Below are positions 46,852 to 58,270 of a DNA stretch of 64,000 bases, in pieces. The DNA is from Bacteroides sp. An322 (GTDB lineage: Bacteria; Bacteroidota; Bacteroidia; Bacteroidales; Bacteroidaceae), in assembly GCF_002161765.1 (NCBI RefSeq), contig NZ_NFIN01000021.1:1-64000 (forward strand), written 5' to 3'. Below the pieces are notes generated by a model. That model was given only the letters and a program-made list of their open reading frames with translations. It did not search any database and was not told the DNA's origin. The translations under genes and the position numbers were made by a program. Position 1 is the stretch's first letter, and each line of letters starts with the position of its first letter.

Positions 46852-46911
46852 GTAAGTTTATTTTGGTTGCAAAAATAATCAAAATAGCGTAATTTGTGTA
46901 TGGGGGAGGGT

Positions 46912-46946
46912 AAAAAAAGAGGATGCTCCTGAAAGAACATCCTCTA
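46912..46946 (-). terminator. Rho-independent terminator of the ferredoxin gene
   Basis: On the minus strand GAGGATG pairs with CATCCTC around a 13-nt loop and is followed by seven T (plus-strand A run 46912-46918). Located 29 nt after the ferredoxin stop. Confidence 0.88.
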
Positions 46947-46974
46947 TAAATCTTAAAATAGACGATTGAATCGA

Positions 46975-47142
46975 TTATCCTTGGTGGATTGCTTCAGAAG
47001 GACATACATCTGCGCAAGTACCGCATTCTGTACACATATCCGGGTTGATAGAATATTTGTCACCTTCAGAAATTGCGCCAACCGGGCATTCATCGATACA
47101 AGTACCGCAAGCGATACAATCGTCACTAATTACGTAAGCCAT
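46975..47142 (-). CDS. 2[4Fe-4S] ferredoxin, 55 residues
   Basis: A short gene encoding a clostridial-type ferredoxin. It starts MAYVISDDCIACGTC and contains two CxxCxxCxxxCP sets: CIACGTCIDECP and CTECGTCADVCP. Each set holds one [4Fe-4S] cluster with a crossed ligand arrangement. The length (55) is normal for the family. It carries low-potential electrons, for example for pyruvate:ferredoxin oxidoreductase. It is monocistronic, with a clear promoter and terminator. Confidence 0.97.
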   Translation of the reverse strand: MAYVISDDCIACGTCIDECPVGAISEGDKYSINPDMCTECGTCADVCPSEAIHQG

Positions 47143-47186
47143 TGTTGTAAAAGTTAAAGTTATTATTAGTACTAATTTTGATATTG

Positions 47187-47194
47187 CAAAGGTA
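47187..47194 (-). promoter_or_regulatory. -7 promoter element of the ferredoxin gene
   Basis: Reads TACCTTTG on the minus strand, 44 nt before the ATG at 47142. Confidence 0.7.
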
Positions 47195-47263
47195 AGGTTT
47201 TTATGTTAAGTTGTAACGTCTACATAGCAATATTTGCATAATTTGTACATAGTCTAAATAGGT

Positions 47264-50227
47264 TCATGGCTTTATTGATTGATACATTGCTTGTTGCATA
47301 CGTGGACGTATATCCAGCTTCATCAGGTTTTTATGGTCGAACGCACGTGGATAGATGCGGTTGCTCAAGAATACGAATACCAATCCGTTATCGGGGTCTG
47401 CCCATGCGCATGTCCCTGTAAAGCCGGTATGTCCGAACACGCTTCGAGGCGCTTCGCGGGCACAAGGGCTTTTAGATGTGTCATCGGCATCCGGTTTATC
47501 GAATCCTAATCCTCGCCGGCTGATATTCGATTGCATATTCAAGAACAAATCACAAGTGGCACGTGTCAAGTACCGGCGGTCTCCGCACACTCCTTTATCT
47601 AATAGCATTTGGAAAATAATGCCGACATCATGAGCCGTAGAGAAAAGCCCGGCATTGCCCGAAACGCCTCCCATAAAAGCGGCTATCTCATCGTGTACGA
47701 AGCCTTGTACCCGCCCTTTGCGTAAGAAATCTTCTTCTACCGTTGGCACAATTTGCTCTTTCGGGAAATGCCGTAAAGGATTATAAGCCGTATGCATCAG
47801 CCCCATGGGTTTATAAAACACGCTATCCAAGTAAACATCCATAGGCATCTGAGCCAATTCTTCTATCATTGCTTCCAAGAGCATGAAGTTCAAGCAACTA
47901 TACCGATAAGAATGTCCCTTTAAAGGAACTTCCGCCAATTGCTTCCGCATCTCTTCCCGAAAGCCGCCATTCAGATACAGGCTATCCGATAACGGAAGAT
48001 TATATTTAGCCGAAGGAGTGCCAGAAACCCATTCCGCATTGTAAGCGAAATCGGTGCAAGCATACAAATGTTCGTCCACTTGCAATTGATGATGTTTGTC
48101 TTTCCGTTTCCGGAACAATCCCCCTTTGCAAGTCTTCTTGTCGATAGCTTCTTCATAGAAGGGCCAATAAGCGGGCAATCCCGACTCATGAAACAACAAG
48201 TCTTGTATGGTAATGTCTTCCTTATCCGTATCTTTCAGCCAAGGCAAAAACTTGCTTATCGGGTCAGTAAGCCCGAACTTGCCTTCATCATACAATTTCA
48301 TTACGGCAAGTAAGGTTCCGGTCGCCTTGCTTAGCGAAGCTAAATCGTACAAGCTATTCTCCTTTATTTCGGGAGAGCCAGCATCATACGTATATCTTCC
48401 GAAACATTTATTATAAACGGGATACCCTTCTTTTAGAATCAAGACGTGACATCCCGGGTATGCCTGTGCTGCAATGCCTTCTTCGGCTATCGAGTCGATG
48501 CGTGCCAATGTGCGTGAGTCCATTCCGAAGTCTTCGGGAGTATACAAATGCGGATGATCCGGATCAATCACAATGCCTGTACCTGCCGGGCATAAGCCGG
48601 CAATACCTACCGATGCTTTGCCCGTGACTTTGGCTTTGCCCGTCATAACATCGGCTACATACCGTTGAATATAGTCTTCATTCGTATGGGCAAGGACAAT
48701 AGCGGAAACTTTTTGAAGCTCTTGTGCCATATCCGCCAATACATCTTGAGATTGGAAACACACGATAGCCAAGGGCTTATCTTCAGCAAATTCTTGAATC
48801 AAAGGAAGATAAGCCTTACAATCCTTCTGATGCAGGGCTACGATGATTTGTTGTGCCGTACGGAGCCGCTCGCGGATAAATGCCAAAGAATCAACTTTTG
48901 CATGAATCCAGCTAACCGATGCGGATGCTTTCAATTCCTTATAGAACGGATAAGCTTCGGTCAGTGTCGGAGAAATGCTAAGCAAGACATTACCAGACAA
49001 AGAGAGTTCCAAAGGAAGCATTTCGATGGAATCCTTTAATACCGTTACCGCAGCCTTGTTCAATGTTGCCAATAAACGTTCCGTTTCGGACGTGGAAATC
49101 CGTTGGGCAATCCCATTCTCATTTACCGAAGGACGTTCTTTCAATCCAAGCGCATATTTATAAGTCAGCACTTTCCGGCATTTTTCCGTTATCGCGTCTT
49201 CACTTAGCAATCCTTTCTTGACGGCATTCAATACCCCCGACATTTCCCGTTTCAAACTACGTGGAGCCAGCACCATGTCGTTTCCGGCTATCAAGGCTTG
49301 TGCACATACATGTTCGGCATGACGTATGCCCTTCATTTCGAGCGCATCGGTAAAGACCAATCCGGAGAATCCGAATTCGTTACGTAAAATCGAAGTGATG
49401 ACTTCGGGAGAGATGGAAGCCGGTTTGTCCTCTATTTCCGGCACTTGCAGATGTCCTACCATCATCCCTCCGATGCCCGCTTCTATCGCTTCACGGAAGG
49501 GATATAATTCGATAGAGTCCAAACGCGCACGGTCGAAATTCAATACCGGAGTAGATACATGAGAATCGGTTTCCGTATCGCCATGTCCCGGAAAATGCTT
49601 GCATACGGCTAAAATGCCTCCGTCTTCCAGCCCGCGGGCGTATGCTATTACTTTCCGAGCCACTTCTTTCGGATTGCTTCCGAAAGAGCGGATATTTATC
49701 ACCGGATTGTCCGGATTATTGTCGATATCTGCCACGGGAGCGAAGTTGACTTGTGCTCCGATTTCGTGCAATTGGCGTGCCACTTCCCTTCCGTACCGAT
49801 AGATTAACGAATCATCTTCAATGCATCCCAATATCCGGTTCTTCGGAAAGTCGGGAGTGCCCGCCAAGCGCATCGCCAAGCCCCATTCGCCATCGAACGT
49901 GATAAGCAAAGGCACTTTGCTCCATTGTTGCGCCAAGTTAGTCAGCTTCACTTGGTCTTCTGTTCTCCCTTTCGAGAAAAGAAGTCCGCCCAGTCCGTAT
50001 TCTTCAATGGCTTTTTGGATATTCGTCTTGTTCCGTTGCATCAAGCTCGGCTCGACGGTATGAATGAATAACTGGCCTATCTTTTGTTTTAAGGTCATAG
50101 TTGCCAATTGACTTTCTACCCATTTCCGGCAATCTGCCGTATCCTTTATCTGGCTGAATATAGCGGTTTGCGCGAACATCGAAACCGATATAAGCATTGT
50201 GACGCATAGAATGATTGTCTTTTTCAT
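47264..50227 (-). CDS. GH3 beta-N-acetylglucosaminidase (NagZ-like) fused to a serine beta-lactamase-type hydrolase
   Basis: 987 residues with a signal peptide (cleavage near SMFAQ, residue 20). The GH3 half (about 35-560) has VNFAPVADIDNNPDNPVI, the NagZ signature KHFPGHGDTETDSH (His/Asp acid-base pair) and GLVFTDALEMKG (nucleophile Asp in FTDALEM). The second half (about 590-987) is a class C beta-lactamase/esterase fold with DLASLSKATGTL (SxxK), YSCLNF (YxN-like) and GHTGFTGT (KTG equivalent). The protein would trim muropeptides or amino sugars and hydrolyse a peptide, amide or ester bond in the periplasm. This fusion is known in Bacteroidetes. It is 3 nt after the nucleotidase gene. Confidence 0.9.
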   Translation of the reverse strand: MKKTIILCVTMLISVSMFAQTAIFSQIKDTADCRKWVESQLATMTLKQKIGQLFIHTVEPSLMQRNKTNIQKAIEEYGLGGLLFSKGRTEDQVKLTNLAQQWSKVPLLITFDGEWGLAMRLAGTPDFPKNRILGCIEDDSLIYRYGREVARQLHEIGAQVNFAPVADIDNNPDNPVINIRSFGSNPKEVARKVIAYARGLEDGGILAVCKHFPGHGDTETDSHVSTPVLNFDRARLDSIELYPFREAIEAGIGGMMVGHLQVPEIEDKPASISPEVITSILRNEFGFSGLVFTDALEMKGIRHAEHVCAQALIAGNDMVLAPRSLKREMSGVLNAVKKGLLSEDAITEKCRKVLTYKYALGLKERPSVNENGIAQRISTSETERLLATLNKAAVTVLKDSIEMLPLELSLSGNVLLSISPTLTEAYPFYKELKASASVSWIHAKVDSLAFIRERLRTAQQIIVALHQKDCKAYLPLIQEFAEDKPLAIVCFQSQDVLADMAQELQKVSAIVLAHTNEDYIQRYVADVMTGKAKVTGKASVGIAGLCPAGTGIVIDPDHPHLYTPEDFGMDSRTLARIDSIAEEGIAAQAYPGCHVLILKEGYPVYNKCFGRYTYDAGSPEIKENSLYDLASLSKATGTLLAVMKLYDEGKFGLTDPISKFLPWLKDTDKEDITIQDLLFHESGLPAYWPFYEEAIDKKTCKGGLFRKRKDKHHQLQVDEHLYACTDFAYNAEWVSGTPSAKYNLPLSDSLYLNGGFREEMRKQLAEVPLKGHSYRYSCLNFMLLEAMIEELAQMPMDVYLDSVFYKPMGLMHTAYNPLRHFPKEQIVPTVEEDFLRKGRVQGFVHDEIAAFMGGVSGNAGLFSTAHDVGIIFQMLLDKGVCGDRRYLTRATCDLFLNMQSNISRRGLGFDKPDADDTSKSPCAREAPRSVFGHTGFTGTCAWADPDNGLVFVFLSNRIYPRAFDHKNLMKLDIRPRMQQAMYQSIKP

Positions 50228-50230
50228 GGC

Positions 50231-51073
50231 TTAATCTTTCGTCAAATGCAATACCATTTTCCCAACAAACGCGGCGTGTTTGCCCATCTGCTGGAGAGGG
50301 ATTTCTTCCCCGTCCAGATTCTTGTAATACTTAGGCGCATTGAAATAAGAATGCGAATGGCCGCCCAATACCACATCGATATTGCGCGTATTTTCTATCA
50401 ATTCCACATCGGAATAAGGCTCTCCTTGCCAGCCTAAATGGGACAGGCAAATGACCAAGTCGCACTTCTCTTGCGTCTTCAGCAGGTCGGCAATCCGTTG
50501 TGCTTCAGATACCGGGTCTTCAAACTTCACGTCTCCATACGACTCTTTAGCCACCAGCCCTTCCAGTTGCGCCCCTAATCCGAATACGCCAATCTTTATC
50601 CCGTCTCTGTTTAGCACGGTATATTCTTTTACCAAACCTTCCAATACAGTGCCAGCGACATCGTAATTGGCACAAACGATAGGAAATTCCGCTAACTTAC
50701 ACAAGCGTGCTAAATTATCCAAGCCGAAATCGAATTCATGATTTCCGATAGTGCCGGTATCATAGCGCATTTCGTTCATTAACTTGATTTCCACTTCCCC
50801 CTTGAATATATTATAATAAGGTGTACCCTGCGAGAAATCTCCGCAATCGAACAACAACAGGTCGGGATGCAATTCGCGTTGCTGGCGGATGAACGTAGCC
50901 CGTCGTATCATTCCGGCTTTCCCAGCCAACAACGTGTCTTGATATTCTTCCGGGAAAGGCTCTATCCGGCTATGCATGTCGTTGGTATGGAACAAATGCA
51001 ATTCTTTCGTTGATTGGGCGGCTATAATTCCCGAAACCAGGCATAGCCATAAGATGAAATAGATTCTTTTCAT
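50231..51073 (-). CDS. Metallophosphoesterase domain of a split 5'-nucleotidase
   Basis: 280 residues with a signal peptide (cleavage near IIAAQ, residue 19). The calcineurin-like metal motifs are FHTNDMHSRIEP, DLLLFDCGDFSQGTPYY, GTIGNHEFDFGLD, LSHLGWQG and VLGGHSHSYF, in the order of UshA-type 5'-nucleotidases. The C-terminal substrate domain of UshA is not in this chain but is encoded by the preceding gene. It would remove phosphate from nucleotides in the periplasm, presumably as a pair with that protein. Confidence 0.9.
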   Translation of the reverse strand: MKRIYFILWLCLVSGIIAAQSTKELHLFHTNDMHSRIEPFPEEYQDTLLAGKAGMIRRATFIRQQRELHPDLLLFDCGDFSQGTPYYNIFKGEVEIKLMNEMRYDTGTIGNHEFDFGLDNLARLCKLAEFPIVCANYDVAGTVLEGLVKEYTVLNRDGIKIGVFGLGAQLEGLVAKESYGDVKFEDPVSEAQRIADLLKTQEKCDLVICLSHLGWQGEPYSDVELIENTRNIDVVLGGHSHSYFNAPKYYKNLDGEEIPLQQMGKHAAFVGKMVLHLTKD

Positions 51074-51088
51074 ATCCGATTCCTCCCT

Positions 51089-51844
51089 TTATCGTTCTAC
51101 AATACGCCCTTCCGTTTGGGCGTCAACCGCTTTCCCTTTCGCTTCACACCGCTTTACGTATTCGATAAACAAGTCACGCAAAGTGGCATTTTCAGGCTCA
51201 ATCTTAGCCGTAGCACGTTTGAATGCTTCCAGACGGTCATTCCCCTCTGCCAGATAATCAATCGTAGCTATCTGGTATTCTTTTTCCGGCTCAATGTTTT
51301 TGCCGCCTACTTTAGCATCCAGCAGCTCTCCTTCTTCCGAGATAATCAGCTTGGCTCCGCTTATTCCTTCGCCATGGACAGCAGCCATTTGGGAAAACAA
51401 TTCCAGCAAATCGCTTCCTTTCAAAGCTACAATAGCCAGTTTATTCTCAAAAGGAGTGATTTCATACACCGACTCAATTGTTATTTCTCCCTCGTTCAGC
51501 AGATTCCGGATGCCTCCCATGTTCATCACTCCGACATCTGCCTTAATGCCTGCTTTCTCTTGGGCACTTATCCGCAAAATATCGGCAAGCAGGTTTGATA
51601 AAGGAGACTCCGGACGATATGCTTCCAGTTTCCGTCCTGCATGTCCGATGACCGGCTTCATGATGCTGTCCACTTGCGCCTGGTAAGGTTGCAAAAGACG
51701 CCATGCCTTCATGTCCTGGTCTGTATCATATCTATTGGTCATCGGTATCCGTTCGCCTTCTACCGATGCTAAAGAATAGCCTGAACGACATGCCGATAAG
51801 GCAAGCATTCCGGCACATACGCTATATAAAATCGTTTTCTTCAT
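51089..51844 (-). CDS. 5'-nucleotidase C-terminal domain protein, lipoprotein
   Basis: 251 residues from the ATG at 51844 (a second ATG two codons upstream is equally usable). A lipoprotein signal [19 protein letters not shown] (Cys19) precedes the UshA C-terminal domain: [37 protein letters not shown] (substrate-binding NxGGIR), [17 protein letters not shown] and [14 protein letters not shown]. The domain clamps the nucleotide base in UshA. It lies 15 nt upstream of the metallophosphatase gene; together they make one enzyme in two chains. Confidence 0.88.
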
Positions 51845-51867
51845 GTTCATGTTTGATAAAATCCGTT

Positions 51868-51898
51868 CAAAGGTAGGTAAAAAAGCCCATGATGCCAA
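51868..51898 (-). promoter_or_regulatory. Bacteroides-type promoter of the nucleotidase operon
   Basis: On the minus strand TTG (51898-51896) and TACCTTTG (51875-51868) are 20 nt apart, matching the consensus; the ATG at 51844 follows 23 nt later. Confidence 0.8.
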
Positions 51899-52043
51899 GA
51901 TTTTAATCAAAATAAAGAGCAAAGGCTTTGCTATGTCACGAAAAATCACTTACTTTGCACCGCTTCCGCGCAATCGCTGTCAAGAAGAGTTACTTGGTAT
52001 GTTGCGTTGGGTACGATCAAACAATTTAATTTCAAAAAAAACA

Positions 52044-52394
52044 ATGGATTTAATTAAAATTGCAGAAGAAGCATTTGCTACTGGCAAACAGCATCCTTCA
52101 TTCAAAGCAGGTGATACGATTACAGTAGCATACCGTATCGTTGAAGGTAACAAAGAACGTGTTCAGATGTACCGTGGTGTAGTGATTAAAATCTGCGGAC
52201 ATGGCGAAAAGAAACGTTTCACTGTACGTAAGATGTCTGGAACTGTAGGTGTAGAACGTATCTTCCCCTTGGAATCTCCGGCTATCGACAGCATTACCGT
52301 AAACAAAATTGGTAAAGTACGCCGTGCTAAATTGTACTACTTGCGTAAACTTACCGGTAAGAAAGCTAGAATTCAGGAAAAGCGTGCTAACTAA
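52044..52394 (+). CDS. rplS: 50S ribosomal protein L19
   Basis: 116 residues from [15 protein letters not shown], which is the L19 N-terminus; the frame is open upstream to 51843 but that part is the leader. Motifs include [51 protein letters not shown] and the C-terminal [18 protein letters not shown]. It sits at the 30S-50S interface. Single gene with a strong terminator. A near-consensus TTACTTTG at 51950-51957 may be its promoter, giving a leader of about 80 nt. Confidence 0.97.
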
Positions 52395-52423
52395 TACTGA
52401 TTCTATTATTTCCTTACATAAAG

Positions 52424-52457
52424 AAACCGGCTCTCTATGCAGTGCCGGTTTTTTTAT
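52424..52457 (+). terminator. Rho-independent terminator of rplS
   Basis: AAACCGGC (52424-52431) pairs with GCCGGTTT (52444-52451) and is followed by a T run. Confidence 0.92.
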
Positions 52458-52518
52458 TCCCTTCAACCTGTCAACGCAGACAATAGGGAAGCGTCAGGCA
52501 TATAGTTGCGTTTCCAAA

Positions 52519-52583
52519 CCAATACGGCTGCTACACCGGTACGATTACTAATCGTATCGCGTGACGATTACTAATCGTATTGG
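52519..52583. repeat. Tandem palindromes inside a larger inverted repeat, upstream of the HU-like gene
   Basis: A 17-nt palindromic unit ACGATTACTAATCGTAT occurs at 52541-52557 and 52564-52580, 23 nt apart start to start. Outer arms CCAATACG (52519-52526) and CGTATTGG (52576-52583) pair. The spacing is about two helical turns. It could be an operator or a small mobile palindrome. Confidence 0.75.
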
Positions 52584-52645
52584 CGAAGCGGCTAAATTCA
52601 TTATAAACAGGGGATAGATGTGTTGAACTTTAAATCAGATAGATT

Positions 52646-53098
52646 ATGATAAAATACAGTTTAGTGATGCGTGGCAAACCGGGCAAACCGGAAGAACCGA
52701 AACAGGTTTTCGCCTCGGCGCAAAGTATCAAGAAAATGTCGCTGGAAGAGGTGGCAAAGTACATCAAACAACACGGTTGTGCGTATAATGTAGGCGATTT
52801 TTTAGCCATGACCGACATGCTTGCACAAGCTACGGCAGACCTGCTGAAGGAGGGGTATCGTATAGATTTGGGTGAATTGGGTGAATTTTATGTCACATTG
52901 GGTTGCGAAGGTGCGGAAAGCAGGGACGACTTTAATCCGGACAAGCACATCAAGGAATTGCGGGTGCATTGGACTCCCGGCGAAACCTTTAAAGACCTCC
53001 GTCAAGGTGCCACATTCGAAGAAAATTTAGACCGCCGCACGGAACTCAAATTATTGCGGGCGGAACGCAAGGGGGAGGCTGCATTGGAGTTGGAATAA
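52646..53098 (+). CDS. HU family DNA-binding protein (HU-HIG type)
   Basis: 150 residues. The N-terminal YSLVMRGKPGKPEEPKQVFA and helices MSLEEVAKYIKQHG and DFLAMTDMLAQATADLLKEG are those of the Bacteroidetes HU-HIG subfamily; GYRIDLGELGEFYVTLGCEGA is the dimer-core strand region, and the tail after about 105 is an extra charged helix. Subfamily members are nucleoid proteins of unknown individual role, several in each genome and often next to mobile or accessory genes. It precedes the large helicase gene, whose promoter begins inside its last codons. Confidence 0.85.
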   Translation: MIKYSLVMRGKPGKPEEPKQVFASAQSIKKMSLEEVAKYIKQHGCAYNVGDFLAMTDMLAQATADLLKEGYRIDLGELGEFYVTLGCEGAESRDDFNPDKHIKELRVHWTPGETFKDLRQGATFEENLDRRTELKLLRAERKGEAALELE

Positions 53099-53119
53099 AT
53101 TACAAAATTTGTATTTTTG
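53090..53119 (+). promoter_or_regulatory. Bacteroides-type promoter of the exonuclease-RecQ-UvrD gene
   Basis: TTG at 53090-53092 (in the last codons of the HU-like gene) and TATTTTTG at 53112-53119, 19 nt apart; the ATG is 37 nt further. Confidence 0.75.
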
Positions 53120-53156
53120 CAAATGAAGTAAAATAACTCAAATAAAGTTGTGATAA

Positions 53157-56100
53157 ATGTTTATATGGGATAGAATAAAAAAAATCAGAAACGCCGGAGG
53201 TGTAGATAATACCATCGACAGAAATGCTGCGCCTGTTCCATACTGTGTACCGCATTACGCCGTGGTAGATGTGGAGGTTGGTTTTAAAGACCATAAAATT
53301 CATGACATCGGAGCACTCCGTGACGATGGTGCTGTTTTTCATAAGACTTCAAAGCCGGAACTATTTGAGTTTTTTAAGAATGTAAATTATATCTGCGGTC
53401 ACAACATCATTCATCATGATGCCAATTATTTATTTGCTAATGACACTTGTCGTTGGAAGTTAGTCGACACGCTTTACATTTCACCTTTGTTGTTTCCAGA
53501 ACGTCCTTACCATAGACTTGTGAAAGACGATAAGTTGGTAAGCGATCAAATGAACAATCCGGTGAATGATTGTGAAAAAGCCAGAGATTTGTTGCAAGAC
53601 GAGATAGTGTGTTGGCGTGCGTTACCGGATGAAAAGCGAAAGGTATTTGCTTCCTTACTGAGAGGTAAGAAAGAGTTCGAAGGTTTCTTTGATATGATGG
53701 GAGCGGAACGCTTTGATAAAGGATTGGCAAAACAAATAAGGGACTTTTACGAGAAGAAAATCTGCTGGCATGCCGACATCGAAATGTTGATTGAGCGATA
53801 TCCATGTGAGTTAGCATACGCATTGGCTTTAGTTGACACAACCGATTATCGTTCCATAACTCCTGCATGGGTGCTTCGTAATTATCCTGAAACAGAGTAT
53901 GTTGTAAAACTTCTTCGTCATACTCGTTGTGGTCAAGGGTGTGTTTATTGCAATACCCAATTGGATGTGCATTATCATTTAAAAGCCTTTTTCGGGTATG
54001 ACCGATTCCGTACCTACGAAGGCGAGCCGCTTCAAGAACAAGCTGCACAAGCAGCGGTAGACGGGAAATCGTTGCTGGCTATATTTCCTACAGGAGGAGG
54101 AAAGTCGCTTACTTTCCAGTTGCCTGCGCTTATGGAAGGACATACCGTACATGGACTTACTGTTGTAATATCTCCTTTGCAATCACTAATGAAGGACCAA
54201 GTAGATAATCTTGCAGATAAAGGTATTGCGGATGCAGTGACCATTAATGGATTGCTGGATCCGATTACAAGGGCATTGTCAATAGAAAGGGTGCAAAACG
54301 GAGAAGCGTCCCTTTTGTATATAGCTCCTGAAATGCTTCGGTCTAAGACTATTGAAAAAATCCTGTTGGCGCGTCATGTCGTTCGGTTTGTGATTGATGA
54401 AGCTCATTGTTTTTCTTCATGGGGGCAGGATTTTAGGGTTGATTATCTTTACATTGGTAAATTCATTCGGGAATATCAGCAAAAGAAAAGATGTAAACGT
54501 CCGATACCTGTATCTTGTTTTACCGCTACAGCAAAACAAAAAGTGATACAAGACATCTGTGATTATTTTAAACAGATTTTAGATATAGATTTAGAATTGT
54601 TTGCTTCAGCGGCTTCGAGGACAAACTTACGTTATTCTGTCATACATACCGAAACGGATGATGATAAATATTTGAAATTGAGAGCACTTGTAGCTGAATT
54701 CGATTGTCCGACAATTGTTTATGTTTCGCGTACCAAACGAACAAAAGAACTGGCTGGCAAATTGACTCGTGACGGTTATAAGGCATTGCCTTTCAATGGA
54801 AAAATGGATGCCGATGAGAAAATCTCCAACCAAGATGCTTTTATGAATGATCAGGTGCGTATCATCGTTGCGACATCGGCTTTTGGTATGGGAGTCGATA
54901 AAAAAGATGTAGGCCTTGTAGTGCATTATGACATATCCGATTCGTTGGAAAATTATGTACAAGAAGCGGGAAGAGCTGGTCGTGACCCCAATCTTAGTGC
55001 CCGTTGTTATGTGCTTTATAGTGATAACGATTTGGATAAGCATTTTATTTTATTGAATCAAACTAAGTTAAGTATCAGCGAAATACAACAAGTATGGAAA
55101 GCTGTAAAAGATTTGACCATACAGCGTAAGCGGGTCTATTGTTCGGCTTTGGAAATTGCGCGTCAAGCAGGATGGGATGATTCGGTGTCTGATATAGAAA
55201 CACGTGTACGGATTGCTTTAGCGACATTGGAACAAAGCGGATATTTGATAAGAGGCAATAATGTTCCACATGTCTATGCTACAGGCATTACGGTAAAGAA
55301 TGTGGATGAAGCGAGAATGCGCTTGTCGGCTTCTGTTTTATTTGATAAAGATGAAATTGAAAATGCTGTACGGATTATCAAATCTTTGATTTCCCAAAAA
55401 CACATAGTCAAGGCTCAAGATGCAGAGGCAGAGTCGCGGATTGATTATTTAGCTGATATATTAGGACTTAATAAAGGTGAAGTTATATCTGTTGTGGAAC
55501 GGATGCGCCAAGAAGGCATATTAGCTGATAGCAAAGACATCTCTGCTTATTTGATGGATACAGGGGATTCGGAACGGAAGTCACGGATACTTCTTGACCG
55601 TTTTGTCAAACTTGAACAATATATTCTTCATCGTATATCTGACGGACCATTACGGATATCTTGTAAGCAATTGAATGATGATGCTGTGAACAATGGCATC
55701 CAGACATCCCGTGAAAAAGACATTCGGACATTGCTGTATTTTCTTGTCGTTAAAGGATATATCCGCAAAAAAGAAGATGCAGCACACAATATGGAAATTG
55801 TTAGTCTAGTAAATTCGGATTCTGTTATAAAGCGTTTTGAAAAGCGATTGGAAATATGCCGTTTTACTGTGGAATGGTTGTATAAAGCAATTAATGGAAC
55901 GACAAAAGAAAATAAACCGGATGAGGCTGTCCAATTTTCCATAGTAGAGCTTTTCAATCAAATCAAAGCTAATCCGCAATCACTTTTCAGCGGCTTGAAC
56001 GATTTGCAATTAGAAGATGTAGAAGAAGCACTTTTATATTTGTCGAAAATCGGTGCGCTCAAACTTGAAGTCGGATTTTTAGTCCTTTATAATGCAATGG

Positions 56101-58031
56101 ATATCCAGCGTATAAAAGACAACAAATCAAGGTATAAACAGGATGATTATCGAATGCTTAACGAATTTTACAAGCAGAAGATTCAACAAGTGCACATTGT
56201 GGGTGAATACGCCAATCTGATGGTAAAGGATTATAATGCGGCGTTGCAATATGTTCAAGACTATTTCCAAATGGATTACAAGAAGTTCATCGCAAAATAC
56301 TTTAAAGGAGAAAGGGTAAGTGAGATACAGCGCAATTTGACACCTAAGAAATATAAGCAATTATTCGGGGAATTGTCTAAACGCCAGATGGAAATTATTT
56401 CAGACAAGGAATCGCGTTGTATCGTAGTAGCAGCTGGTCCAGGGAGTGGAAAAACACGTGTACTGGTTCATAAACTAGCTTCTCTCCTTCTGCTGGAAGA
56501 TGTAAAACATGAACAACTATTAATGTTGACATTCTCAAGAGCTGCTGCTACTGAATTTAAACAACGGCTAATGGCATTGATTGGCAACGCTGCACATTTT
56601 GTTGAAATAAATACCTTTCATTCTTATTGTTTTGACCTTTTGGGACGGATTGGGAATCTTGAAGAGGTTAAAAATGTTGTTGCGAATGCAGCTGAAAGAA
56701 TAAATCGAGGAGAGGTAGAGCCTAATAAAATAGGCAAAACGGTATTGGTTATTGACGAGGCTCAGGATATGAGCGCAGAAGAATATGCATTAGTCAAAGC
56801 ACTTATGGCTAATAATGAAGAAATGCGTGTGATAGCGGTGGGCGATGATGACCAGAATATTTATGAATTCCGTGGTTCTGATTCAGCGTATATGTATCAA
56901 CTGGCACAAGCACCCGAAAGCCGGTTTATAGAGATGATAGAGAATTATCGTAGTGCACGTCATCCCGTAGATTTTGCTAATGGATTCGTAAAAAATATCG
57001 GTAAAAGAATGAAAACCAACCCTATCCGATCTATGAGGAAAGAAGCTGGATGGGTTGAAGTGATACGGCATAATTCTGTGTATATGTATCAGCCGCTTGT
57101 TGAAGAATTACTCCGTTATCGAGAGAAAGGCACTTCTTGTGTACTTACTCAAACCAATGAAGAGGCTGTTATTATAATGGCTCTTTTGAGGAAATGTGGT
57201 GTCAACACTAAGTTAATACAATCATTGGATGGATTCCGCTTTTGGAATTTGGCTGAAATGAGATATTTCTTAAAATATATAGACCAAAATACGGATACGC
57301 CTCTGATTCCGGAAAATGTATGGGAACAAGCAAAACATACAACCTTTTCTATATATGATAGAAGTCAAAGTTTAGTATATGTGAAGCGTTGTGTGGAACA
57401 ATTCGAGAAAACCTATAAAATAAAGTACATCAGTGATTTTAAGGAGTTTGTGTTTGAATCATCGATAGAAGATTTCTGTGATATATCAGGAACAGATGTG
57501 GTGGTATCGACCATTCACAAAGCTAAAGGGAAGGAATTTGATGACGTATATATGCTTATAGCAGATAATTATCAAAAAAATGCATCTTTAATGCGTCGCT
57601 ATTACGTGGGGATAACACGTGCAAAAAACCGGTTATTCATACATACAAATGGGGAATGTTTTAATCATTTGAATTTCGACCAGTATGTTGTCGATTCTAA
57701 GCAGTATGCAATGCCTGGAGAGATTGTACTGCAACTTTCTCATAGAGACGTTTATTTAGAATACTTTAAGAAATACAAACGTGAGATTTTGGCATTAAGG
57801 GGAGGAGATGCTTTAATTTATAAAGATTTTGTGTTGTATGATGTCCCGACTCACAAACCAATAGCAAAGTTGTCTTTAAATATGCAGCAAACATTATCAG
57901 GCTGGAAAGAAAAAGGCTACGAAGTGAAATCAGCATCTGTCCGCTTTGTTGTAGCATGGAAACCTAAAGATGCTCCAAAGGAAGAACCGGAAACAGCTGT
58001 CTTATTGGCAGATTTACTTCTTTCCTTATAG
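53157..58031 (+). CDS. Exonuclease-like / RecQ helicase / UvrD-like helicase fusion protein
   Basis: 1,624 residues with three enzyme modules. (1) Residues about 33-145 look like a DEDD-type 3'-5' exonuclease: VVDVEVG (Asp38, Glu40), GHNIIHHDANYL (Asp88) and NNPVNDCEKARDLL (Asp138). (2) A Cys cluster CGQGCVYC (258-265) precedes a RecQ-type SF2 helicase: PTGGGKSLTFQLPAL (P loop 312-317), VIDEAHCFSSWGQDFR (DEAH 414-417), SCFTATA, TSAFGMGVDK and QEAGRAGRD. (3) From about 1075 an SF1A UvrD/Rep helicase: AAGPGSGKTRVL (P loop near 1094-1101), LTFSRAAATEF, VIDEAQDMS (about 1198-1206), GDDDQNIYEFRG, IENYRS, VVSTIHKAKGKEFDDVY and YVGITRAKNRL. The region between holds winged-helix-like segments. Both motors look intact. 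It probably acts on damaged, branched or foreign DNA; repair or phage defence are both open. Codon use is AT-richer than in the flanking cys genes. Confidence 0.92.
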   Translation: MFIWDRIKKIRNAGGVDNTIDRNAAPVPYCVPHYAVVDVEVGFKDHKIHDIGALRDDGAVFHKTSKPELFEFFKNVNYICGHNIIHHDANYLFANDTCRWKLVDTLYISPLLFPERPYHRLVKDDKLVSDQMNNPVNDCEKARDLLQDEIVCWRALPDEKRKVFASLLRGKKEFEGFFDMMGAERFDKGLAKQIRDFYEKKICWHADIEMLIERYPCELAYALALVDTTDYRSITPAWVLRNYPETEYVVKLLRHTRCGQGCVYCNTQLDVHYHLKAFFGYDRFRTYEGEPLQEQAAQAAVDGKSLLAIFPTGGGKSLTFQLPALMEGHTVHGLTVVISPLQSLMKDQVDNLADKGIADAVTINGLLDPITRALSIERVQNGEASLLYIAPEMLRSKTIEKILLARHVVRFVIDEAHCFSSWGQDFRVDYLYIGKFIREYQQKKRCKRPIPVSCFTATAKQKVIQDICDYFKQILDIDLELFASAASRTNLRYSVIHTETDDDKYLKLRALVAEFDCPTIVYVSRTKRTKELAGKLTRDGYKALPFNGKMDADEKISNQDAFMNDQVRIIVATSAFGMGVDKKDVGLVVHYDISDSLENYVQEAGRAGRDPNLSARCYVLYSDNDLDKHFILLNQTKLSISEIQQVWKAVKDLTIQRKRVYCSALEIARQAGWDDSVSDIETRVRIALATLEQSGYLIRGNNVPHVYATGITVKNVDEARMRLSASVLFDKDEIENAVRIIKSLISQKHIVKAQDAEAESRIDYLADILGLNKGEVISVVERMRQEGILADSKDISAYLMDTGDSERKSRILLDRFVKLEQYILHRISDGPLRISCKQLNDDAVNNGIQTSREKDIRTLLYFLVVKGYIRKKEDAAHNMEIVSLVNSDSVIKRFEKRLEICRFTVEWLYKAINGTTKENKPDEAVQFSIVELFNQIKANPQSLFSGLNDLQLEDVEEALLYLSKIGALKLEVGFLVLYNAMDIQRIKDNKSRYKQDDYRMLNEFYKQKIQQVHIVGEYANLMVKDYNAALQYVQDYFQMDYKKFIAKYFKGERVSEIQRNLTPKKYKQLFGELSKRQMEIISDKESRCIVVAAGPGSGKTRVLVHKLASLLLLEDVKHEQLLMLTFSRAAATEFKQRLMALIGNAAHFVEINTFHSYCFDLLGRIGNLEEVKNVVANAAERINRGEVEPNKIGKTVLVIDEAQDMSAEEYALVKALMANNEEMRVIAVGDDDQNIYEFRGSDSAYMYQLAQAPESRFIEMIENYRSARHPVDFANGFVKNIGKRMKTNPIRSMRKEAGWVEVIRHNSVYMYQPLVEELLRYREKGTSCVLTQTNEEAVIIMALLRKCGVNTKLIQSLDGFRFWNLAEMRYFLKYIDQNTDTPLIPENVWEQAKHTTFSIYDRSQSLVYVKRCVEQFEKTYKIKYISDFKEFVFESSIEDFCDISGTDVVVSTIHKAKGKEFDDVYMLIADNYQKNASLMRRYYVGITRAKNRLFIHTNGECFNHLNFDQYVVDSKQYAMPGEIVLQLSHRDVYLEYFKKYKREILALRGGDALIYKDFVLYDVPTHKPIAKLSLNMQQTLSGWKEKGYEVKSASVRFVVAWKPKDAPKEEPETAVLLADLLLSL

Positions 58032-58104: not shown

Positions 58105-58270
58105 CAAAAAAGAGACTGTCTCAAAATGAGAATTGCCTATTAAAAAGTAATGTCTAAGGGAGCGTAGCGAAGAATCTCGTGTACATCAGCTTGTGTATTC
58201 GAGATCCTTCACGGCGTTCAGGATGACAAAATGAAAGTTTATTTCAATTTTGAGACAGCCTCTTTATTTT
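58105..58270. repeat. MITE-like palindromic element, 'GAGACTGTCTCAAAAT' family
   Basis: Arms GAGACTGTCTCAAAAT (58112-58127) and ATTTTGAGACAGCCTC (58247-58262), one mismatch apart. The core contains a second palindrome (GAATCTCGTGTACA with TGTATTCGAGATCC). The right arm overlaps the 3' end of the sulfotransferase gene. Confidence 0.85.

What the first reader, a model, noticed from the sequence alone, without database searches (positions are those of the whole stretch)
53157..58031. Single 1,624-residue protein joining a DEDD exonuclease-like domain, RecQ and UvrD-type helicases
Seen: acidic motifs of a 3'-5' exonuclease at the N-terminus, a Cys cluster, a complete set of RecQ motifs and a complete set of SF1A motifs, all in one uninterrupted frame, with its own promoter. 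Known: RecQ and UvrD are usually separate repair enzymes; combinations of nuclease with SF1/SF2 motors occur in repair complexes and phage-defence systems. Inference: two motors plus a nuclease in one chain could process DNA ends or forks in both strands. The gene is AT-richer than the cys genes beside it and sits next to an HU-like gene and a MITE-like repeat, which fits accessory DNA. This is the best candidate here for an undescribed system.
Basis: partly seen in the sequence, partly recalled or inferred. Interest (0 to 1): 0.75.

Follow-up and report, generated by a model that had tools for sequence, protein, structure and literature searches.

The report
Mobile exonuclease-RecQ-UvrD fusion protein
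One bacterial gene encodes a DNA-chewing enzyme and two different DNA-unwinding motors in a single chain; the same three-part protein is scattered through distant bacteria as a lone, frequently transferred gene, and it may defend cells against invading DNA, although nobody seems to have studied it.

Summary
Window 53157-58031 (+) is one intact 1,624-codon frame. Residues 30-272 fold with high confidence (pLDDT 91) as a DEDD/DnaQ-type 3'-5' exonuclease, closest to that of Firmicute DinG. Asp38, Glu40, Asp88 and Asp138 are conserved in 80-81 of 81 relatives, but the usual His/Tyr of motif III is an almost invariant Asn133. A four-Cys cluster follows, then a RecQ core without the RecQ zinc and HRDC domains, a winged-helix linker, a compact UvrD-type helicase lacking most of 1B/2B, and a small C-terminal domain.

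The architecture is not unique. About 80 relatives (38-80% identity), most full-length, exist in Bacteroidota, Bacillota and other phyla, plus plasmid copies in Proteobacteria, Campylobacterota and Cyanobacteria; databases call them only 'RecQ family ATP-dependent DNA helicase'. It is patchy (15/61 genomes of the genus, 15/395 of the phylum), sits beside different genes, is AT-rich, diverges more than flanking core genes, and has no obligatory partner. Some copies lie next to restriction or DISARM genes, so single-gene defence is the leading but unproven role; accessory repair is the main rival. The neighbouring HU gene and MITE look incidental. I found no published description in the library held.

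The parts
53157..58031 (+). Exonuclease-RecQ-UvrD fusion gene, 1,624 aa
   Evidence: Open frame; about 80 relatives, most of the same length and module order
53244..53666 (+). Residues 30-170: DEDD (DnaQ-like) 3'-5' exonuclease core; D38, E40, D88, D138; Asn133 at the usual His position
   Evidence: AlphaFold2 pLDDT 91; best fold matches DinG, DnaQ, ExoI, RNase T; conservation
53667..53972 (+). Residues 171-272: helical extension with four conserved Cys (C203, C258, C262, C265), probable Zn or Fe-S site
   Evidence: Invariant/nearly invariant columns of A2; secondary structure
53973..55076 (+). Residues 273-640: RecQ (SF2) helicase core
   Evidence: TIGR00614 above cut-off; RECQ5/RecQ PDB matches E about 1e-53; motif residues invariant
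55077..56354 (+). Residues 641-1066: linker with several winged-helix-like modules
   Evidence: AlphaFold2 pLDDT 82 but pTM 0.50; middling structural matches to winged-helix proteins, Z 6-9; no zinc-binding Cys cluster here
56355..57671 (+). Residues 1067-1505: compact UvrD/PcrA-type SF1A helicase, most of 1B and 2B missing
   Evidence: Pfam; alignment to PcrA shows 32 residues where PcrA has 117 and about 68 where it has about 155
57672..58031 (+). Residues 1506-1624: small conserved C-terminal domain, fold not identified (includes stop codon)
   Evidence: Alignment A6; no PDB sequence match
53090..53119 (+). Promoter-like sequence TTGG-N18-TATTTTTG
   Evidence: Pattern match; not tested

Best explanation
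It is a stand-alone, horizontally transferred DNA-processing enzyme. Shown by computation: a DEDD-fold exonuclease, a RecQ motor and a stripped-down UvrD motor, joined by winged-helix-like modules, all under strong purifying selection. Inferred: it loads on 3'-tailed or forked DNA; RecQ moves 3'-5' into the duplex while the exonuclease next to it trims the 3' strand it leaves behind (the arrangement of eukaryotic WRN and of Firmicute DinG); the UvrD motor, also of a 3'-5' family and without its regulatory 2B domain, strips proteins or unwinds the second arm. Inferred and weaker: its main use is to destroy or stall invading phage or plasmid DNA, as a single-gene defence, not routine repair, because the host already has three other RecQ-type frames and further UvrD-type helicases, and the gene comes and goes.
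For: Catalytic residues of all three enzymes are invariant or nearly so in 81 proteins, most of 38-80% identity. dN/dS is below about 0.12 in every module where dS could be computed, apart from the short N-terminal tail. Exonuclease fold. Patchiness: 15/61 genus, 15/395 phylum. Transfer: fusion 80% identical to that of G016 with saturated dS while neighbouring proteins are 81-99% identical, most of them 88% or more; the copy in Coprobacter, another family, is equally close (80%); low G+C; the flanking genes of most copies in the genus and relatives differ; plasmid copies. Redundancy in the host: three further RecQ-like frames of 610-747 aa and three further UvrD-family frames. Defence link: PLD-ResIII-DUF3427 'mREase_IV' gene beside it at four loci in two phyla; these genes occur in only 5 of 61 genomes of the genus, four of which carry the fusion (Fisher p 0.011, not corrected for relatedness); DISARM drmB/drmC just upstream on a Scytonema plasmid; a type I R-M frame beside it in Desertivirga (L071) and R-M genes on pALVIN01; near neighbours match 100 PADLOC families against 35 for distant ones.
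Against: Most copies have no defence gene next door, the window's own included. The near/far PADLOC comparison counts families, not proteins, and PADLOC models overlap. No biochemical or phage data. The general-base His/Tyr of DEDD exonucleases is Asn here, so nuclease activity could be weak or lost, although the four metal-binding acids are kept. The host's other helicases do not exclude a specialised repair role.
Confidence: 0.5

Rival explanations
1. Accessory DNA repair or fork-restart enzyme: a bacterial counterpart of WRN/DinG that trims 3' ends and unwinds forks under replication stress, spread by transfer because it helps in damaging niches.
For: RecQ, UvrD and DinG-type exonucleases are all repair or replication-stress enzymes; the exonuclease domain is structurally closest to DinG, whose B. 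subtilis form is a 3'-5' exonuclease (PMC12525004). No obligatory partner gene. Many copies lie between ordinary genes.
Against: Found in about 4% of Bacteroidota genomes sampled, host already has RecQ and UvrD enzymes, and restriction or DISARM genes recur beside it.
Confidence: 0.33
2. Mobile-element gene: helps plasmids or integrative elements to replicate, recombine or exclude competitors.
For: Occurs on conjugative or mobilizable plasmids of several phyla, once next to parAB; relatives in some IMG/VR contigs.
Against: No match in 50,697 phage records; most copies in Bacteroidales lie between chromosomal genes without relaxase or integrase next door.
Confidence: 0.12

Closest known systems
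DinG of Firmicutes (Staphylococcus aureus, Bacillus subtilis)
   Same: N-terminal DEDD exonuclease fused to a helicase; best fold match, Z 13 over 221 residues; B. subtilis DinG degrades ssDNA 3'-5' (PMC12525004)
   Different: DinG has one XPD-type motor; here the motors are RecQ and UvrD, and four conserved Cys follow the exonuclease, whereas the paper says B. subtilis DinG lacks the Cys of the Fe-S site
WRN (Werner syndrome protein)
   Same: 3'-5' exonuclease followed by a RecQ core, with winged-helix-like modules after it (PDB match to the WRN helicase)
   Different: No RQC zinc or HRDC domain found here, a UvrD-type motor added, bacterial, and no sequence match of the exonuclease to WRN found
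Gabija GajB
   Same: Compact UvrD-type helicase; PADLOC and PDB matches
   Different: GajB works with the nuclease GajA; no recurrent partner gene here, and GajB is not fused to RecQ
DpdF and PsyrT (RecQ-like helicases of defence systems)
   Same: RecQ-like core, PADLOC matches down to E 2e-93 and 2e-75
   Different: Matches cover only residues about 268-657; no widely recurrent partner gene was seen
RecBCD/AddAB
   Same: Works-like comparison only: nuclease plus one or two motors acting on DNA ends
   Different: Exonuclease is of DEDD type, not the RecB-type PD-(D/E)XK (own knowledge for the latter); both motors are of 3'-5' families; the RecB and AddA equivalog cut-offs are not reached

Membership tests
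RecQ helicases | RecQ-type SF2 core (TIGR00614) | tested here: met
   263.5 bits, cut-off 219.8; motif residues invariant
RecQ helicases | RecQ zinc-binding and HRDC domains of canonical RecQ | tested here: not met
   Neither domain detected by Pfam at E up to 1; RecQ equivalog TIGR01389 309 bits against a cut-off of 640; no conserved Cys cluster after the core
UvrD/PcrA helicases | SF1A motor motifs | tested here: met
   Pfam UvrD-helicase and UvrD_C above cut-offs; motifs invariant or nearly so
UvrD/PcrA helicases | Complete 1B and 2B subdomains / equivalog score | tested here: not met
   Short spacings against PcrA; pcrA 127 bits against a cut-off of 911
DEDD 3'-5' exonucleases | RNase H-like DnaQ fold with four acidic metal ligands | tested here: met
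   coordinates of the acids could not be measured, only their place on the secondary structure and in the motifs
DEDD 3'-5' exonucleases | General-base His (DEDDh) or Tyr (DEDDy) in motif III | tested here: not met
   Asn133 in 79 of 81, followed by Asn/Asp134; invariant in 13 diverse members
DEDD 3'-5' exonucleases | Exonuclease activity | not testable with these tools
   Needs protein
Gabija | gajA beside gajB | tested here: not met
   No widely recurrent partner gene
Dpd or PsyrTA | Match over the whole helicase protein and partner genes | tested here: not met
   PADLOC matches limited to the RecQ part; no widely recurrent partner
Anti-phage defence systems | Neighbourhood association and transfer | tested here: inconclusive
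   Transfer well supported; association recurrent but at a minority of loci
Anti-phage defence systems | Protects against phages | not testable with these tools
   Needs an assay

The most novel reading that the evidence does not exclude
A widespread, undescribed single-gene anti-phage or anti-plasmid defence: one polypeptide with a non-canonical (Asn-type) DEDD exonuclease and two 3'-5' motors that attacks free or replicating foreign DNA without any partner.
Probability: 0.4. Interest if true: 0.7.

Novelty: new variant of a known kind. Interest (0 to 1): 0.5.

Why it matters
Nuclease-helicase machines decide the fate of DNA ends in repair and in immunity. Here three catalytic modules that are usually separate have stayed fused across several bacterial phyla while the gene itself moves between genomes, yet annotation reduces it to 'RecQ helicase'. 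A family test (phage challenge, DNA-damage test, exonuclease assay of Asn133) is simple and would either add a single-gene defence system or a bacterial WRN-like enzyme.

Tried and rejected
HU-like gene as partner: rejected, it stays beside rplS in G016 where the fusion is elsewhere. MITE at 58106-58268 as the vehicle of transfer: rejected as evidence, the family has many copies in the genome (57 matching places, both strands counted). Conserved partner gene: none recurs in more than 9 of 94 loci, and those that recur are at varying distances and orientations. Phage origin: no match in the phage collection; about a dozen IMG/VR contigs hold the whole or most of the fusion, not examined for prophage borders. 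PDB sequence search with the exonuclease, linker and C-terminal profiles gave no convincing match. Literature searches found no description (open-access library only). The exact number of defence proteins among neighbours could not be counted, as the tool lists only the 25 most frequent families. The viral fold search returned only generic exonuclease and polymerase matches. Counting RecQ genes of the own genome by family failed; the number three rests.

Full report
Observation. The frame at 53157-58031 (+) is intact, 1,624 codons. Pfam and NCBIfam place a RecQ core at about 273-640 and a UvrD-type helicase at about 1067-1505, both far above curated family cut-offs. The N-terminus has no significant family match on its own, but 10 of 80 relatives weakly match DNA_pol_B_exo1 and 2 match RNase_T.

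Exonuclease domain. An alignment of 80 relatives (A2) gave an AlphaFold2 model of residues 30-272 with pLDDT 91 and pTM 0.88. Foldseek and VIA-align put DinG of S. aureus first (Z 13.2, 221 residues aligned, rmsd 4.3, 15% identity), followed by polymerase exonuclease domains, DnaQ, ExoI, ISG20, RNase T and TREX-like enzymes. Asp38 and Glu40 fall on the first strand, Asp88 on the helix of motif II and Asp138 in the first turns of the long helix of motif III; I could not measure distances. D38, E40, D88 are invariant in 81 sequences and D138 in 80; Asn133, five residues before D138 where DEDDh enzymes have His, is Asn in 79 of 81 and in all 13 members of a set with proteobacterial, campylobacterial and cyanobacterial members. 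His119 and Lys123 are also invariant. Whether Asn133 weakens the nuclease or marks another chemistry is open. Cys203, Cys258, Cys262 and Cys265 form a conserved set just before RecQ: a zinc or iron-sulphur site by inference.

Motors and linker. The RecQ core keeps all motifs but has no detectable RecQ zinc or HRDC domain. The linker model (pLDDT 82, pTM 0.50) has repeated winged-helix-like units, with middling matches to winged-helix proteins. The UvrD part aligns to PcrA in pieces, with 32 residues where PcrA has 117 (1B) and about 68 where it has about 155 (2B). Both motor families move 3'-5' (established knowledge), so a RecBCD-like opposite-polarity pair is not predicted.

Family. A genome scan returned about 80 relatives, most full-length and with the same module order and spacing, 38-80% identical, from Bacteroidota, Bacillota, Fibrobacterota, Lentisphaerota, Spirochaetota, Aminicenantes and a deltaproteobacterium. 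Plasmids hold copies in Bacteroides, Aliarcobacter, Rhizobium, Croceicoccus, Paracoccus, Cereibacter, Thiothrix, Allochromatium and cyanobacteria, annotated where at all as RecQ helicases; those in B. finegoldii and P. massiliensis are on records with chromosome-like genes and may be assembly artefacts. All modules except the short N-terminal tail are under purifying selection. Some copies have broken frames, so the gene is dispensable, assembly errors aside.

Mobility. In the window's genus (Phocaeicola by the title of a record, CALUJF010000011.1, whose length and flanking genes equal those of G071:C11) 15 of 61 genomes carry it, 12 of 37 among good assemblies; in the phylum sample 15 of 395. 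Flanking genes differ between most loci; exceptions are near-identical strains and one pair with shared upstream genes. In G016 the neighbouring proteins of the window locus are 81-99% identical (HU 81%, a metallophosphatase part 84%, the rest 88-99%), whereas the fusion is 80% identical with saturated synonymous change and lies 1.76 Mb away in contig coordinates; the 46.9-53.1 kb block is inverted there relative to the cys genes, so the window copy sits at a rearrangement border. G+C is 38.7% against 44.5%. The tree groups by phylum only roughly.

Context. No partner recurs widely. A PLD-ResIII-DUF3427 protein (PADLOC mREase_IV) is close to the fusion at L036, L105, L111 and L216. In the genus it occurs in 5 of 61 genomes, four of them carriers of the fusion (p 0.011, uncorrected); chance adjacency at four of about 100 loci is very unlikely under a rough Poisson estimate, which assumes the genus frequency everywhere. 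DISARM drmB and drmC lie upstream in Scytonema, a type I R-M-like frame next to L071, R-M genes on pALVIN01 and type I-D CRISPR genes about 4 kb away on pTfr153. Near neighbours match 100 PADLOC families against 35 for far ones in equal-sized samples, an imperfect measure. An ATP-binding (HATPase_c_4) protein with a C-terminal HTH is another recurrent neighbour in Bacteroidaceae.

Verdict. The biochemical reading (3'-5' exonuclease fold plus two motors on one chain) is well supported by sequence and fold, about 0.85; the role is not settled: defence 0.5, accessory repair 0.33, mobile-element use 0.12. It is a new variant of a known kind (nuclease-helicase fusions), widespread in databases, apparently unstudied.

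Noticed in passing
window 58106-58268: MITE-like element of about 163 bp with 22-bp terminal inverted repeats (AAAAAAGAGACTGTCTCAAAAT); many copies in this genome (57 matching places, both strands counted).
   Followed up: partly
window 52515-52605: Short dispersed repeat around TACGATTACTAATCGTA between rplS and the HU gene; up to about 10 further sites in this genome and many in the relative G016.
   Followed up: partly
window 46909-53124: Block from the glycosidase/beta-lactamase gene to HU is inverted relative to the cys genes in G016; the fusion gene lies at the border.
   Followed up: partly
L251 3664-4674: In G016 a RhuM-like gene follows the HU gene where the window has the fusion.
   Followed up: no
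L216 3-7640: Operon-like array in a Phocaeicola genome: fusion, HATPase_c_4/HTH protein, PLD-ResIII-DUF3427 protein on one strand.
   Followed up: partly
L215: Copy of the fusion with its frame broken after about 160 codons in G041.
   Followed up: no
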